In this document: positions 7,098 to 10,150 of the stretch, in pieces
How positions within the stretch are numbered: the first letter of the stretch is position 1
Layout: the number at the start of each line of letters is the position of its first letter
NCBI RefSeq assembly: GCF_012979535.1
Contig: NZ_CP053015.1
Coordinates: 62,001-126,000, forward strand
DNA: 64,000 nucleotides
From: Sphingomonas lacunae
GTDB lineage: Bacteria > Pseudomonadota > Alphaproteobacteria > Sphingomonadales > Sphingomonadaceae
Direction of reading: 5' to 3'
Program-made: the position numbers and the translations under genes
The notes under the pieces: generated by a model
Told to the model about the DNA's origin: nothing
What the model saw: the letters and a program-made list of their open reading frames with translations, nothing else
Database searches by the model: none

Positions 7098-7132
7098 GAC
7101 GTGTCACCGTAATTCCCGTCACCGTAGTTCCC
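7098..7132. repeat. 19-bp direct repeat copy 1 with a 15-bp tandem duplicate
   Basis: GACGTGTCACCGTAATTCC at 7098-7116 is repeated exactly at 8623-8641. Within it, GTCACCGTAATTCCC (7103-7117) is followed at once by GTCACCGTAGTTCCC (7118-7132). This copy lies 28 bases past the end of the small membrane gene of the second RHS cassette. Confidence 0.85.
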
Positions 7133-7159: not shown

Positions 7160-7312
7160 CTATCTGCGGTGAATGACATTGCGGATTACAGGTCCAAAAA
7201 TTATAAGCCCAAGAACTACCATCGCCGGTATCGTATAAAACGCATACTTGCCGATCTCGGCAAGGAAGACCGTGTGAACGATGAGCAGGGCTATATAGGC
7301 GATCTTCCACAT
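7160..7312 (-). CDS. 50-residue two-helix membrane protein, candidate immunity protein of the second RHS cassette
   Basis: A short frame from ATG at 7312 to TAG at 7160 encodes 50 residues. It starts MWKIAYIALLIVHTVFLAEI, then a short polar turn (GKYAFYT), a second hydrophobic segment with VVLGLIIFG, and ends in the basic tail VIRNVIHRR. It begins four bases after the stop codon of the RHS protein, on the same strand. This is where RHS and contact-dependent toxin systems carry the immunity gene. I do not recognise a named family. The immunity role is inferred from position and from membrane topology, which would suit a toxin acting on the membrane. The ribosome-binding site is weak, so translation may be coupled to the upstream gene. 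Confidence 0.55.
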   Translation of the reverse strand: MWKIAYIALLIVHTVFLAEIGKYAFYTIPAMVVLGLIIFGPVIRNVIHRR

Positions 7313-7316
7313 AATT

Positions 7317-8474
7317 TTAACACTCAGGAATATTTGAGCTGACGACTCTGCCGCGGGTCATACTTGCAGCTGCACCGCCCCCACCTTCGAGTCCGCCTTG
7401 GATTGCAGCCAGATTCCCGTCGCCATCGAAAGAGGAATCAATGCCGACGATCGCGCCAGCCCGTAACGCTGTGCCTTGCCCGACAAGCGACCTCAAATCC
7501 GGTGATACACCGCCCGAATATCCAAGAGAGGCATACAACCCGAGGTGCGCTGAGCCGACAGCAATAACGCCTTCCGAACCTGAATACGCGTCATGGAACC
7601 TGAGGAAGGAGATGCCTGCGCCAAAGACCAGCGAAAAGTCTAGATTTGCGCCATGGAAGGTAACTACGCCGTCGTCGAGAGTCCTCGGACCTGCACCTAC
7701 AATCCGCCGACCGTTATCAGCCAAGCAGTATGGATTTTTCTTTTTCGGCCTGCGTCCGGTGACAACGATGTCCTTATTACTCTCAGTCCCTGGACTATAC
7801 CCATTAGCGTAATTCAGTGCTGGAAATGTATGCAGGATGGAATTTGTGTCTCTAGGACCAATAACAATAATAGGCCTATTCACATAGGTTGCCATCCCCG
7901 TCGGATCGCGCATATTCAGCGGATCATTGCCGACATAGGCATAGAGGTTCATCTGGTCCTGATAGCCGATGGGGTCAGTCTGCAAAAACCGGCCCAGCGT
8001 CGGTGAGTAGATGCGGGCCTTGTAGTGGTACATGCCCAGTTCCGGGATCCACGCCTGGGTCTCGGGACTTGCCTGTCCCCCGGACAGGCGCGTGCCTCGA
8101 CTATATTGGAACCGGCCAAGGTTGGTCGCGTCGGGCACGCCCCAATCGTCATAGCGATCGATCGCCAGCAGCGCGCCGGTGCCGTTGGTGATGCCCACGA
8201 TGCTCCCCTGATTATCGGCGAACAGATGGCGGCGGCTGGTCGCCGTCACCGTGGCGCCTTCATACCATATAATCGGATCATCAACAGAGGCCCCGTGCAC
8301 ATATCGGCGCAACAGGGTGCCGGTTGAACTATATTCGGCGACCAACTCATCCCCATCGTAGAGGAACCGCGTTACCCCCGCGCTGCCGCCCGAGGTTTCA
8401 TAGAGGCGACCGAGCGGATCATAGATGAGGTTGGCGGTGCGCGCGCCGGTAGCCGCGATCAGGCGGTTCTGCAC
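7317..8474 (-). CDS. Orphan RHS core fragment with a glycine-rich C-terminal domain (second cassette)
   Basis: About 385 residues from a GTG at 8474. Residues 1-194 are the end of an RHS/YD-repeat core ([16 protein letters not shown] near 157-171, ending [12 protein letters not shown]). Residues 195-385 are a variable C-terminal domain containing [12 protein letters not shown] and a long glycine-rich hydrophobic stretch. I do not recognise this domain. The RHS frame stays open upstream as recognisable YD repeat to about 8612, with no proper start, so this is a cassette cut from a larger protein. The core is nearly identical to that at 9780-10180, but residues 124-139 replace three residues of the other copy and contain a palindrome. 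A small membrane gene follows after four bases. No secretion signal is present; the piece may be silent until recombined. Confidence 0.7.
8058..8105 (-). repeat. In-frame palindromic insertion within the RHS core
   Basis: Compared with the sister core copy (9935-9943), this copy has 48 bases in place of 9, a net gain of 13 codons without frame loss. The inserted DNA contains GCCTGTCC (8071-8078) and GGACAGGC (8082-8089), a perfect eight-base inverted repeat around CCC. Confidence 0.65.
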
Positions 8475-8622: not shown

Positions 8623-8641
8623 GACGTGTCACCGTAATTCC
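8623..8641. repeat. 19-bp direct repeat copy 2
   Basis: GACGTGTCACCGTAATTCC, identical to 7098-7116 and 1,525 bases away. It lies between the end of the first candidate immunity gene and the truncated 5' end of the second RHS fragment, so the two copies bracket the whole second cassette. Confidence 0.9.
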
Positions 8642-8678: not shown

Positions 8679-9212
8679 TCAACAAAAAATTGAATCGCAA
8701 TACAATTCCCTCCTTTTGTCTGGAGTTATATCAGAAAACTGCTCAAAATTTATATTCAATTTTTTGACTATTTCCACAGATTCTATAGTATAAAAAACTC
8801 CATCTGGCGCCTCCGCCACGCTGATTCTGGCTATTTTGCCTTTGAAAGCAAAAATCTTTGCTTTATCCCATTGGCCATCTAAATCATCTACAGTATTTGA
8901 GATAAATCTATTATAACTTAACCCATTTTCCGATATAAAACCTTTATCATCGATGATTTTCAAGGCATTTATCGCCACATTAATAGTATTATCGCGACCT
9001 TGAATAGATGTGTAGCACCTTACAGACACAAAATTTGTGAAAACTTCCGTCTTGTTTTCAACAAGTATGAGTATTGCTTGAATGTCGCCTTCACTTGTTG
9101 ACCAACATTTTGGAATATTTAAATATTCTTGATATGATACATTATTTATTTGTTGGCTTTGATTAAGGTAGCCTGAACAAGCCAAGAATAATATAAATAT
9201 ATATTTAGTCAT
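8679..9212 (-). CDS. AT-rich hypothetical exported protein, candidate immunity protein of the HExxH RHS cassette
   Basis: A 177-residue protein that begins [18 protein letters not shown]. This is a short signal peptide with a lipobox-like FLAC, so it may be a lipoprotein, although Phe at -3 is unusual. No family is recognised. The gene is strikingly AT-rich, with many ATA, AAT and TTT codons unlike the GC-rich neighbours, which points to recent transfer. Its ATG overlaps the stop codon of the upstream RHS gene as ATGA (9209-9212), so translation is probably coupled. Position, size and base composition match immunity genes of polymorphic toxins. A periplasmic or membrane location would protect against a toxin active outside the cytoplasm; this is inferred. 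Confidence 0.65.
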
Positions 9213-10150
9213 GGAAACATCGGCCTCCCAGCCTCTGCATCAATAGCACTATCTATATCTTGAGAACATGTAGATCTAATAAGACAATAACTTGACATTC
9301 TAAAATGTAAATAACCTCTCCAATCCAAATTTGATCCTGCGAAATCACCAAATTCAGCTCTATTCATTAAAAATGACATAACAAAAGGCCTAACTTCACG
9401 TTCGAGTCGGTTAAGACCCCCTACCTGTTGTCCTTGGTGGACCATCTCATGGGCCACCACTGCACCTACTGACAACCCCGTTCTCTCGATTTTTCTCGTG
9501 TCTATTTCGATAATGTTTCCTACCAAATGATAGCGACCTACAGGTGTTCCGGAAATTTCGCCTGTTTGCACTGTAACACCACCGCTACCTTCTGTTCCGA
9601 ACCTGTCCATCATTCGCCCTATCGCAGCCGCTGCTGCGCGAAAAGCGTGATTCTGGGCTGGAGAGGCCGACATATTGCGAGCCTGCCTTAGATAGTAATT
9701 CCGAGCAGCCTCCATTGCACCCTGCGCACTTCTAGCTGCTGCACAAGCGTCGATTGTTTTACATTCATACATCCCCATCGGATCCCGCCCATTCAGCGGA
9801 TCATTCCCCACATAGGCATAGAGGTTCATCTGGTCCTGATAGCCGATGGGGTCCGTCTGCAGGAACCGGCCCAGCGTCGGTGAGTAGATGCGGGCCTTGT
9901 AGTGGTACATGCCAAGCTCGGGGATCCACGCCTGGCCGGTAAACTGGAACCGGCCAAGGTTGGTGGCGTCGGGCACACCCCAATCGTCATAACGGTCTAT
10001 CGCCAGCAGCGCGCCGGTGCCGTTGGTGATGCCCACGATGCTCCCCTGATTATCGGCGAACAGATGGCGGCGGCTGGTCGCCGTCACCGTGGCGCCTTCA
10101 TACCATATAATCGGATCATCAACACCCGCCCCGTGCACGTAACGGCGCAA
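9209..10150 (-). CDS. Orphan RHS core fragment with HExxH zinc-peptidase C-terminal toxin domain
   Basis: About 313 residues counted from a TTG at 10150; the RHS frame continues to about 10177 and meets a stop at 10199-10201, with no good start. Residues 1-127 are RHS core ending [11 protein letters not shown], nearly identical to the copy at about 7890-8340. The remaining 186 residues form a different domain carrying [12 protein letters not shown], with HExxH at residues 234-238, followed by [10 protein letters not shown], where Glu250 or Glu252 could be the third zinc ligand. This is the layout of a zincin-type metallopeptidase, known among C-terminal toxin domains of RHS and other polymorphic toxins. 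The candidate immunity gene follows with an ATGA overlap. Lacking an N-terminus and secretion signal, it is an orphan module rather than a complete toxin. Confidence 0.7.

What the first reader, a model, noticed from the sequence alone, without database searches (positions are those of the whole stretch)
7160..8474. Second RHS cassette with an unannotated-size 50-residue two-helix membrane gene as candidate immunity protein
Directly seen: the RHS fragment at 7317-8474 carries a different, glycine-rich C-terminal domain, and four bases after its stop a 50-codon gene (7160-7312) encodes two hydrophobic segments and a basic tail. Genes this short are often missed by automatic gene calling. The neighbour cassette has a candidate immunity gene in the same place. 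Inferred: the C-terminal domain may attack membranes and the small protein protects against it.
Basis: partly seen in the sequence, partly recalled or inferred. Interest (0 to 1): 0.62.

Follow-up and report, generated by a model that had tools for sequence, protein, structure and literature searches.

The report
Membrane guard beside RHS toxin cassette
A broken-off end piece of a bacterial toxin gene, predicted to make a small membrane-attacking barrel, is followed at once by a 50-residue two-helix membrane protein that probably protects its owner; related bacteria carry many such tiny guards behind other toxins of this kind.

Summary
A frame open from about 8678 to 7317 (-) is the tail of an RHS protein. 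Four bases after its stop lies a 50-codon ATG frame (7160-7312) with two hydrophobic helices and a basic tail; 1 of 20000 shuffles of that DNA gives such a frame. I found no relative of the 50-residue protein.

Of 198 RHS tails from the same bacterial family, 17 (ours included) are followed by a gene of at most 80 codons with two or more hydrophobic helices; shuffles give 16 of 3960. The toxin domain (CTD-B) looks like one of a divergent class of glycine-rich RHS C-termini that start and end with Cys; in all 14 members aligned the next gene is membrane-anchored, though the five clearest relatives have larger, unrelated ones. A 14-sequence model is an eight-stranded barrel (pLDDT 76) closest to the Rhodococcus equi Vap fold (Z 11.9; next other family 6.3), whose best-known member permeabilises membranes.

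Best reading: a membrane-active barrel toxin with a two-helix immunity protein, present here as an orphan cassette, since no full-length RHS gene was found in the genome. Unexpected: the linker carries a TonB-box-like motif (DIVVTGRR), found in 28 of 202 tails.

The parts
7160..7312 (-). 50-codon ORF, two predicted TM helices, basic tail; candidate immunity protein (Imm-B)
7317..8474 (-).
7893..7994 (-). end of RHS core [10 protein letters not shown]...NMRDPTGM, the conserved stretch where Tse5-type RHS proteins cut themselves (cleavage here inferred)
7737..7892 (-). linker between core and toxin domain
7755..7769 (-). TonB-box-like IVVTG within [14 protein letters not shown]
7317..7736 (-). 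toxin domain CTD-B (139 residues NPYC...IPEC plus stop): predicted eight-stranded Gly-rich barrel, Cys near start and at end
8035..8110 (-). stretch that holds an in-frame insertion of about 13 codons with a palindrome, relative to cassette A and L024
9209..10150 (-). neighbour cassette A: N-truncated RHS tail, C-terminal domain with AHEMVHQ (HExxH-like)
8679..9212 (-). candidate immunity gene of cassette A, lipoprotein-like N-terminus, overlaps the toxin stop by 4 nt
7102..7130 (-). two copies of GAAYTACGGTGAC after cassette B
8627..8640 (-). GAATTACGGTGACA at the junction of cassettes A and B

Best explanation
Cassette B is an orphan toxin-immunity cassette of the RHS kind. In complete relatives (shown by reading five) the RHS protein begins with what looks like a Sec signal and shows no PAAR domain; the C-terminal piece is presumably freed at the conserved DPxG site (inferred from Tse5). 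CTD-B is a disulphide-clasped (inferred), glycine-rich eight-stranded barrel of Vap-like fold (predicted). It disturbs or permeabilises the inner membrane of a competitor, probably from the periplasmic side (inferred). The 50-residue product is a two-helix membrane hairpin, both ends probably in the cytoplasm (positive-inside), that sits in the producer's inner membrane and blocks the domain there (inferred). In this genome no complete RHS gene was found, so the pair is a silent reserve or a left-over immunity.
For: Frame and hydropathy far above shuffles: 1 of 20000. Genes of at most 80 codons with two or more TM segments behind 17 of 198 RHS tails of the family, ours included, against 16 of 3960 shuffles. 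Gly-rich, Cys-ending C-termini: next gene with two or more TM 26 of 45 against 30 of 147, Fisher 4e-6; TM or lipobox 39 of 45 against 81 of 147, 9e-5, ours left out. All 14 members of alignment A2 have a membrane-anchored next gene (L124 only if its 78-codon ATG frame is taken over a longer frame). Fold: pLDDT 75.9, pTM 0.66 with 14 sequences; Vap proteins Z 9.7-11.9, rmsd 2.4-2.7 over 101-105 residues, next family Z 6.3. VapA permeabilises liposomes and collapses proton gradients (passages of PMC10100859). Tse5 (RHS, pore-forming) is neutralised by Tsi5 with two TM regions (passages of PMC9637101); immunity proteins of CDI ionophores are modelled as two-helix hairpins with both ends in the cytoplasm (passages of PMC11630599). 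Signal-like N-termini in 5 of 5 complete proteins read and no PAAR in Pfam scans of their first 400 residues.
Against: No relative of the 50-mer anywhere searched. Membership of CTD-B in the class is weak by sequence: leave-one-out E 0.018, best decoy 0.038; 8 of 14 members of A2 are not recovered by the others. Without the alignment the model is poor (pLDDT 33.8). No Pfam, NCBIfam or PHROGs match to the domain, and no sequence-profile hit to Vap proteins. Vap homologues are described with a C-terminal Trp; CTD-B has none. Membrane activity of Vaps is only an analogy. The five HMM-supported relatives carry larger, unrelated immunity candidates. An antisense frame has a higher codon score. The cassette is truncated and its core carries an insertion.
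Confidence: 0.55

Rival explanations
1. The toxin domain is an enzyme or binder in the periplasm or at the membrane rather than a permeabiliser, and the small protein only anchors at the membrane to intercept it.
For: Several relatives with Gly-rich domains have lipoprotein-like immunity candidates (L171, L184, L265; L122 has an N-terminal TM segment), which suggests a periplasmic encounter; COG5400 of Brucella, a small barrel protein, is the fifth structural match, Z 6.3, and the best A2 profile hit in the PDB, E 0.089.
Against: No conserved polar catalytic residues in A2: the only invariant columns are C4, G53, C139. The COG5400 sequence hit is at noise level: the smaller profile A3 gives an antibody at E 0.032.
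Confidence: 0.2
2. The 50-codon frame is a gene, but unrelated to immunity, for example a small membrane protein stranded at the cassette's edge.
For: No homologue to tie it to the toxin; cassette remnants lie between repeat motifs.
Against: Position four bases after the toxin stop matches the place of immunity candidates in the family: 17 of 198 small two-TM genes against 0.4% in shuffles.
Confidence: 0.12
3. The 50-codon frame is not translated; the overlapping 63-codon frame or nothing is used, in a decayed RHS remnant.
For: RHS tail truncated, core insertion at about 8035-8110, only tails found in the genome; an antisense frame has a higher codon score, 9.5 against 6.7; a simple longest-frame rule picks the 63-codon frame.
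Against: 1 of 20000 shuffles gives such a two-helix frame; the 63-codon frame has no hydrophobic segment, a GTG start and codon score -1.1.
Confidence: 0.13

Closest known systems
Tse5 / Tsi5 of Pseudomonas aeruginosa (passages of PMC9637101)
   Same: RHS protein with pore-forming C-terminal domain; immunity protein with two predicted TM regions; autocleavage before the toxin domain
   Different: No PDB sequence match of CTD-B at E 1 or better; relatives here have signal-like N-termini, not a PAAR-like domain; Imm-B has 50 residues; here only a fragment
Vap proteins of Rhodococcus equi (fold matches; passages of PMC4118825 and PMC10100859)
   Same: Predicted eight-stranded barrel with four strands, one short helix, four strands and a Gly-rich end; flexible segment in front; VapA is membrane-active
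   Different: No sequence-profile match; no C-terminal Trp; here fused behind an RHS core with an immunity candidate beside it
CDI ionophore toxins and CdiI hairpins; Ntox25 and Tse4 predicted barrels (passages of PMC11630599)
   Same: Small two-helix immunity hairpins; depolarising toxins, some predicted as barrels
   Different: The CDI ionophores are five-helix bundles delivered by CdiA; no match to an Ntox family in Pfam scans
Imm17 and Imm-CdiI, two-TM immunity families (passages of PMC3482391)
   Same: Two TM helices
   Different: Imm17 has WxW and an Arg between the helices, absent here

Membership tests
RHS polymorphic toxin (TIGR03696) | RHS-associated core domain | tested here: met
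   69.6 bits, cut-off 32.5, residues 140-194
RHS polymorphic toxin (TIGR03696) | complete RHS shell and N-terminal delivery region | tested here: not met
   3 core matches in the genome, frames 453, 329, 190 codons, all N-truncated
RHS polymorphic toxin (TIGR03696) | variable C-terminal domain after DPxG followed by an immunity gene | tested here: met
   by position, cassettes A and B; function untested
Gly-rich Cys-bounded RHS C-terminal class (defined here) | profile built from other members finds CTD-B above decoys | tested here: inconclusive
   E 0.018, first of non-members, best decoy 0.038, among 2060 shuffles and 1356 decoy frames
Gly-rich Cys-bounded RHS C-terminal class (defined here) | Cys near start and at end of the domain | tested here: met
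   C4 and C139 invariant in 14 of 14; members were chosen partly for this
Vap family | eight-stranded barrel of Vap-like fold | tested here: met
   model against VapB, VapD, VapG Z 9.7-11.9; rests on a predicted model, strand order not inspected
Vap family | sequence similarity detectable by profiles | tested here: not met
   no Pfam match up to E 10; profiles A2 and A3 do not find Vap chains. So Vap-like fold, not filed as a Vap
Vap family | Gly-rich C-terminus followed by Trp | tested here: not met
   Gly-rich end present, no Trp in CTD-B; feature from PMC4118825 passages
Tse5 / Tsi5 | sequence homology of toxin domain | tested here: inconclusive
   no PDB sequence match up to E 1; presence of the Tse5 toxin sequence in that set was not checked
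Tse5 / Tsi5 | two-TM immunity protein | tested here: met
   two hydrophobic segments
Tse5 / Tsi5 | T6SS delivery | not tested
   no T6SS search of the genome; N-terminus missing here
TonB-dependent bacteriocin | TonB box in a flexible N-terminal stretch of the released toxin | tested here: inconclusive
   motif enriched in tails; TonB binding not testable

The most novel reading that the evidence does not exclude
RHS proteins of this bacterial family are Sec-exported and, once cut at DPxG, their C-terminal pieces act like colicins: a flexible N-terminal stretch with a TonB box ([DE]IVVT[GA]x[RK]) draws them through TonB-dependent receptors into competitors, where toxins of many kinds, among them a Vap-fold membrane barrel with a 50-residue two-helix immunity protein, do the killing.
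Probability: 0.25. Interest if true: 0.85.

Novelty: new variant of a known kind. Interest (0 to 1): 0.58.

Why it matters
It would give a Vap-like barrel, known from a macrophage-dwelling pathogen and of debated mechanism, an antibacterial context with an immunity protein, so that the membrane action of the fold could be studied in laboratory bacteria. It would also show that very short two-helix genes behind RHS tails are a regular immunity type. The TonB-box-like motif suggests a testable entry route for Sec-exported RHS toxins whose delivery is unexplained in what I read.

Tried and rejected
Direct relatives of CTD-B: none at E 0.001 in 298 family genomes; in 396 order and 398 phylum genomes only weak hits, none of the loci fetched behind an RHS core; none by patterns in genome contigs or viral contigs, plasmids or the PDB. 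The 50-mer: weak hits only, inside longer frames; DUF7333 at E 0.046 is below its cut-off. Plasmids by DNA gave five records with RHS-region matches at 60-80% identity, none covering most of the query; L122 as query gave none. PADLOC: nothing.

The first idea that CTD-B stands alone was dropped after reading RHS tails of the family. Ntox25/Tse4-type barrels were considered; they are not in the Foldseek or VIA lists, which excludes nothing. A comparison of the TonB-like motif in RHS tails of other bacterial families failed for lack of rows: only 8 tails could be parsed, 0 with the strict motif. The viral fold library gave no match at E 0.001. The small two-TM proteins are not detectably related to ours. 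Papers: no paper holds 'polymorphic toxin', 'Rhodococcus equi' and 'Vap' together; a second search with five of six terms gave two unrelated genome papers (listing only); 'Rhs' with 'TonB box' and 'toxin' gave one, on colicin M (listing only); 'TonB box' with 'polymorphic toxin' gave six, on colicins, other bacteriocins and Ton (listing only); 'Rhs', 'signal peptide', 'TonB-dependent', 'Sphingomonad' gave none. EipA/DUF1134 papers were listed but not followed up. Of PMC12744356 I saw the abstract and outline only.

Full report
Where it lies. The window is part of a 2,977,834-base single-contig genome. The family is probably Sphingomonadaceae: one family member's contig (L199) has the length, and the hit position, of the Sphingomonas plasmid record (inference). 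On the minus strand two RHS tails follow each other: cassette A (9209-10150, then 8679-9212) and cassette B (7317-8474, then 7160-7312). Only three RHS-core places were found in the genome (E 0.01 or better), all N-truncated; the third (L024) has a C-terminus of about 35 residues and no immunity gene next to it. Between A and B, after B and after the third tail stands the same short motif GAAYTACGGTGAC.

The 50-codon frame. It starts four bases after the stop of the tail. It has two hydrophobic segments, a weakly charged turn (AEIGKYA) and a basic end (RNVIHRR); by the positive-inside rule (recalled) both ends face the cytoplasm. Shuffling the DNA after the stop gave an equal frame in 1 of 20000 trials; of 88 frames of 200 or more codons in the window only this one is followed by such a small frame. 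The codon score is 6.7 bits in frame, -1.1 in the overlapping 63-codon frame, but 9.5 in an antisense frame, so codon usage helps little. There is no relative, so no test of selection.

The toxin domain seemed an orphan: no family-library or PDB match, and no relative in genomes or plasmids by single-sequence search. I therefore read what follows the RHS core in related bacteria: 19 of 80 genus genomes, 66 of 298 family genomes, and three further genus-level sets, 7 of 10, 18 of 71 and 2 of 7 genomes with matches, partly genomes already seen. From the 313 loci then held, those with an RHS core gave 214 different tails, 202 with a C-terminus of 60 or more residues. Matches that one search did not list were not fetched, and tails running off a locus were dropped.

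Small membrane genes are common there. A gene of 40 to 80 codons with at least two hydrophobic segments starts between -40 and +60 of the RHS stop in 17 of 198 tails, the window's own included; shuffled downstream DNA gives 16 of 3960. With the window's cassette B left out, Gly-rich C-termini ending in Cys have a next gene with two or more TM segments in 26 of 45 cases, other C-termini in 30 of 147 (Fisher 4e-6); TM or lipobox 39 of 45 against 81 of 147 (9e-5). For the at-most-80-codon two-TM genes alone the difference is not significant (7 of 45 against 10 of 147, p 0.08). Other toxin kinds share the habit, for instance domains with a phospholipase-like Cys-His-Asp stretch (L131, L248; motif recalled).

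A class for CTD-B. L114, L125, L122, L171 and L265 form a supported family (E 7e-5 for L171 from the first three, 1.4e-6 for L265 from four). CTD-B is the best non-seed at E 0.11 when L265 is added, and in a leave-one-out test over 14 sequences it ranks first among non-members at E 0.018, the best decoy being 0.038; L171, a supported member, scores no better (0.020), and 8 of the 14 are not recovered. I chose the 14 by eye from Gly-rich tails, having seen their neighbours. Each begins near a Cys and ends near one (invariant C4, C139). The next gene is membrane-anchored in all 14: TM segments in ours, L114, L122, L124, L125, L144, L147, L177, L208, L271, L287; a lipoprotein-like start in L171, L184, L265. 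L124 counts only through a 78-codon ATG frame that a longest-frame rule would miss, as happens in the window. L104, a similar domain without the Cys pair, was left out; its neighbour has 118 residues and four TM segments. Neighbours fall into families that follow the toxin subfamily: L114 with L125 (E 3e-7 to 3e-6), and, weakly, L122 with L171 and L265 (E 0.004-0.007), as expected of immunity proteins. Our 50-mer matches none of them.

Fold. Alone, the 192-residue C-terminus gave no usable model (pLDDT 33.8). With the 14-sequence alignment the 139-residue domain gave pLDDT 75.9, pTM 0.66: four strands, a short helix, four strands. Foldseek's five best PDB rows are Rhodococcus equi Vap proteins (E 0.002-0.007; none at 0.001 or better). 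The second aligner gives VapB, VapD and VapG Z 9.7-11.9 at 2.4-2.7 A over 101-105 residues, then a Brucella COG5400 barrel at 6.3 and designed or outer-membrane barrels at about 5. The Vap strand order was called novel by its describers, with a Gly-rich end and one helix (passages of PMC4118825). I could not inspect the model's strand order myself. VapA permeabilises liposomes, VapN and VapB less so, and the authors note it may act unlike known pore formers (passages of PMC10100859). Vap homologues in other phyla are known, without signal peptides and of unknown function (PMC4118825 passages). I found no paper that links Vap to polymorphic toxins.

Delivery. Five complete RHS proteins of the family were read; all five begin with what looks like a Sec signal (judged by eye) and their first 400 residues show no Pfam domain but RHS repeats in three. 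This differs from the Tse5 kind, which has a PAAR-like N-terminus. Between the DPxG site and the toxin domain, 28 of 202 tails carry I[VI]VT[GA]; residue shuffles average 0.21 with a maximum of 2 in 200; decoy frames hold 2 in 249,779 residues; occurrences of the relaxed motif cluster in the first 80 residues. The 28 tails fall into 27 of 126 sequence clusters, and 21 have a basic residue within three positions. The cores of five complete proteins hold none of the strict motif and two of the relaxed one. The pattern resembles the TonB box of TonB-dependent receptors and colicins (recalled). CTD-B has it: [14 protein letters not shown], window 7755-7769 for IVVTG. An alternative is a docking strand for the RHS cage or another export partner.

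State of the cassette. Cassette B's core holds an in-frame insertion of about 13 codons with a palindrome where cassette A and L024 read FQFTGQAW. With no complete RHS gene found in the genome, toxin delivery is unlikely now; the small gene may persist as immunity, or both may be decaying. The GC content is 0.57 for the domain, 0.47 for the small gene and 0.32 for the immunity candidate of A, against 0.62 for the RHS core.

Verdict. I put the whole mechanism at 0.55: immunity role of the small protein more likely than not, Vap-like barrel likely if the alignment is right, membrane action by analogy. Kind: RHS toxin-immunity pair, known; the barrel domain and the extreme shortness of its guard make it a new variant.

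Noticed in passing
window 7755-7769 (-); 28 of 202 RHS tails, e.g. L073, L079, L150, L225, L231: TonB-box-like motif I[VI]VT[GA] in the linker between RHS core and toxin domain, across unrelated toxin domains (27 of 126 clusters).
   Followed up: partly
L314-L318: Complete RHS proteins of this family (about 1420-1490 residues) start with Sec-signal-like sequences and show no PAAR domain; how they leave the cell is unexplained.
   Followed up: partly
window 9209-10150 and 8679-9212 (-): Cassette A: C-terminal domain with AHEMVHQ (HExxH-like), similar by eye to L111, and a 177-residue candidate immunity protein with a lipoprotein-like start, GC 0.32.
   Followed up: no
window 8035-8110 (-): In-frame insertion of about 13 codons with a GCCTGTCC...GGACAGGC palindrome inside the RHS core of cassette B, absent from cassette A and L024.
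   Followed up: partly
window 7102-7130, 8627-8640; L024 1997-2009; 25 of 348 loci (some overlap each other): Short repeat AAYTACGGTGACA at cassette borders in this genome and near RHS tails elsewhere; it resembles repeats near REP-type transposases (recalled).
   Followed up: partly
L138, L143, L179, L214, L258, L289, L065: A second kind of C-terminus, apparently a helical hairpin ending in Cys, behind which genes of at most 80 codons with two TM segments also stand in several loci.
   Followed up: no
L131, L248, L116, L193: RHS C-termini with a CxxHDxCY-like stretch (phospholipase A2-like, recalled); L131 and L248 have small two-TM genes next door.
   Followed up: no
G000:C1:2054820-2055206 (L024): Third RHS remnant of the genome, lodged beside an aminotransferase-like gene, with a 35-residue Gly-rich end and no immunity gene.
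   Followed up: no
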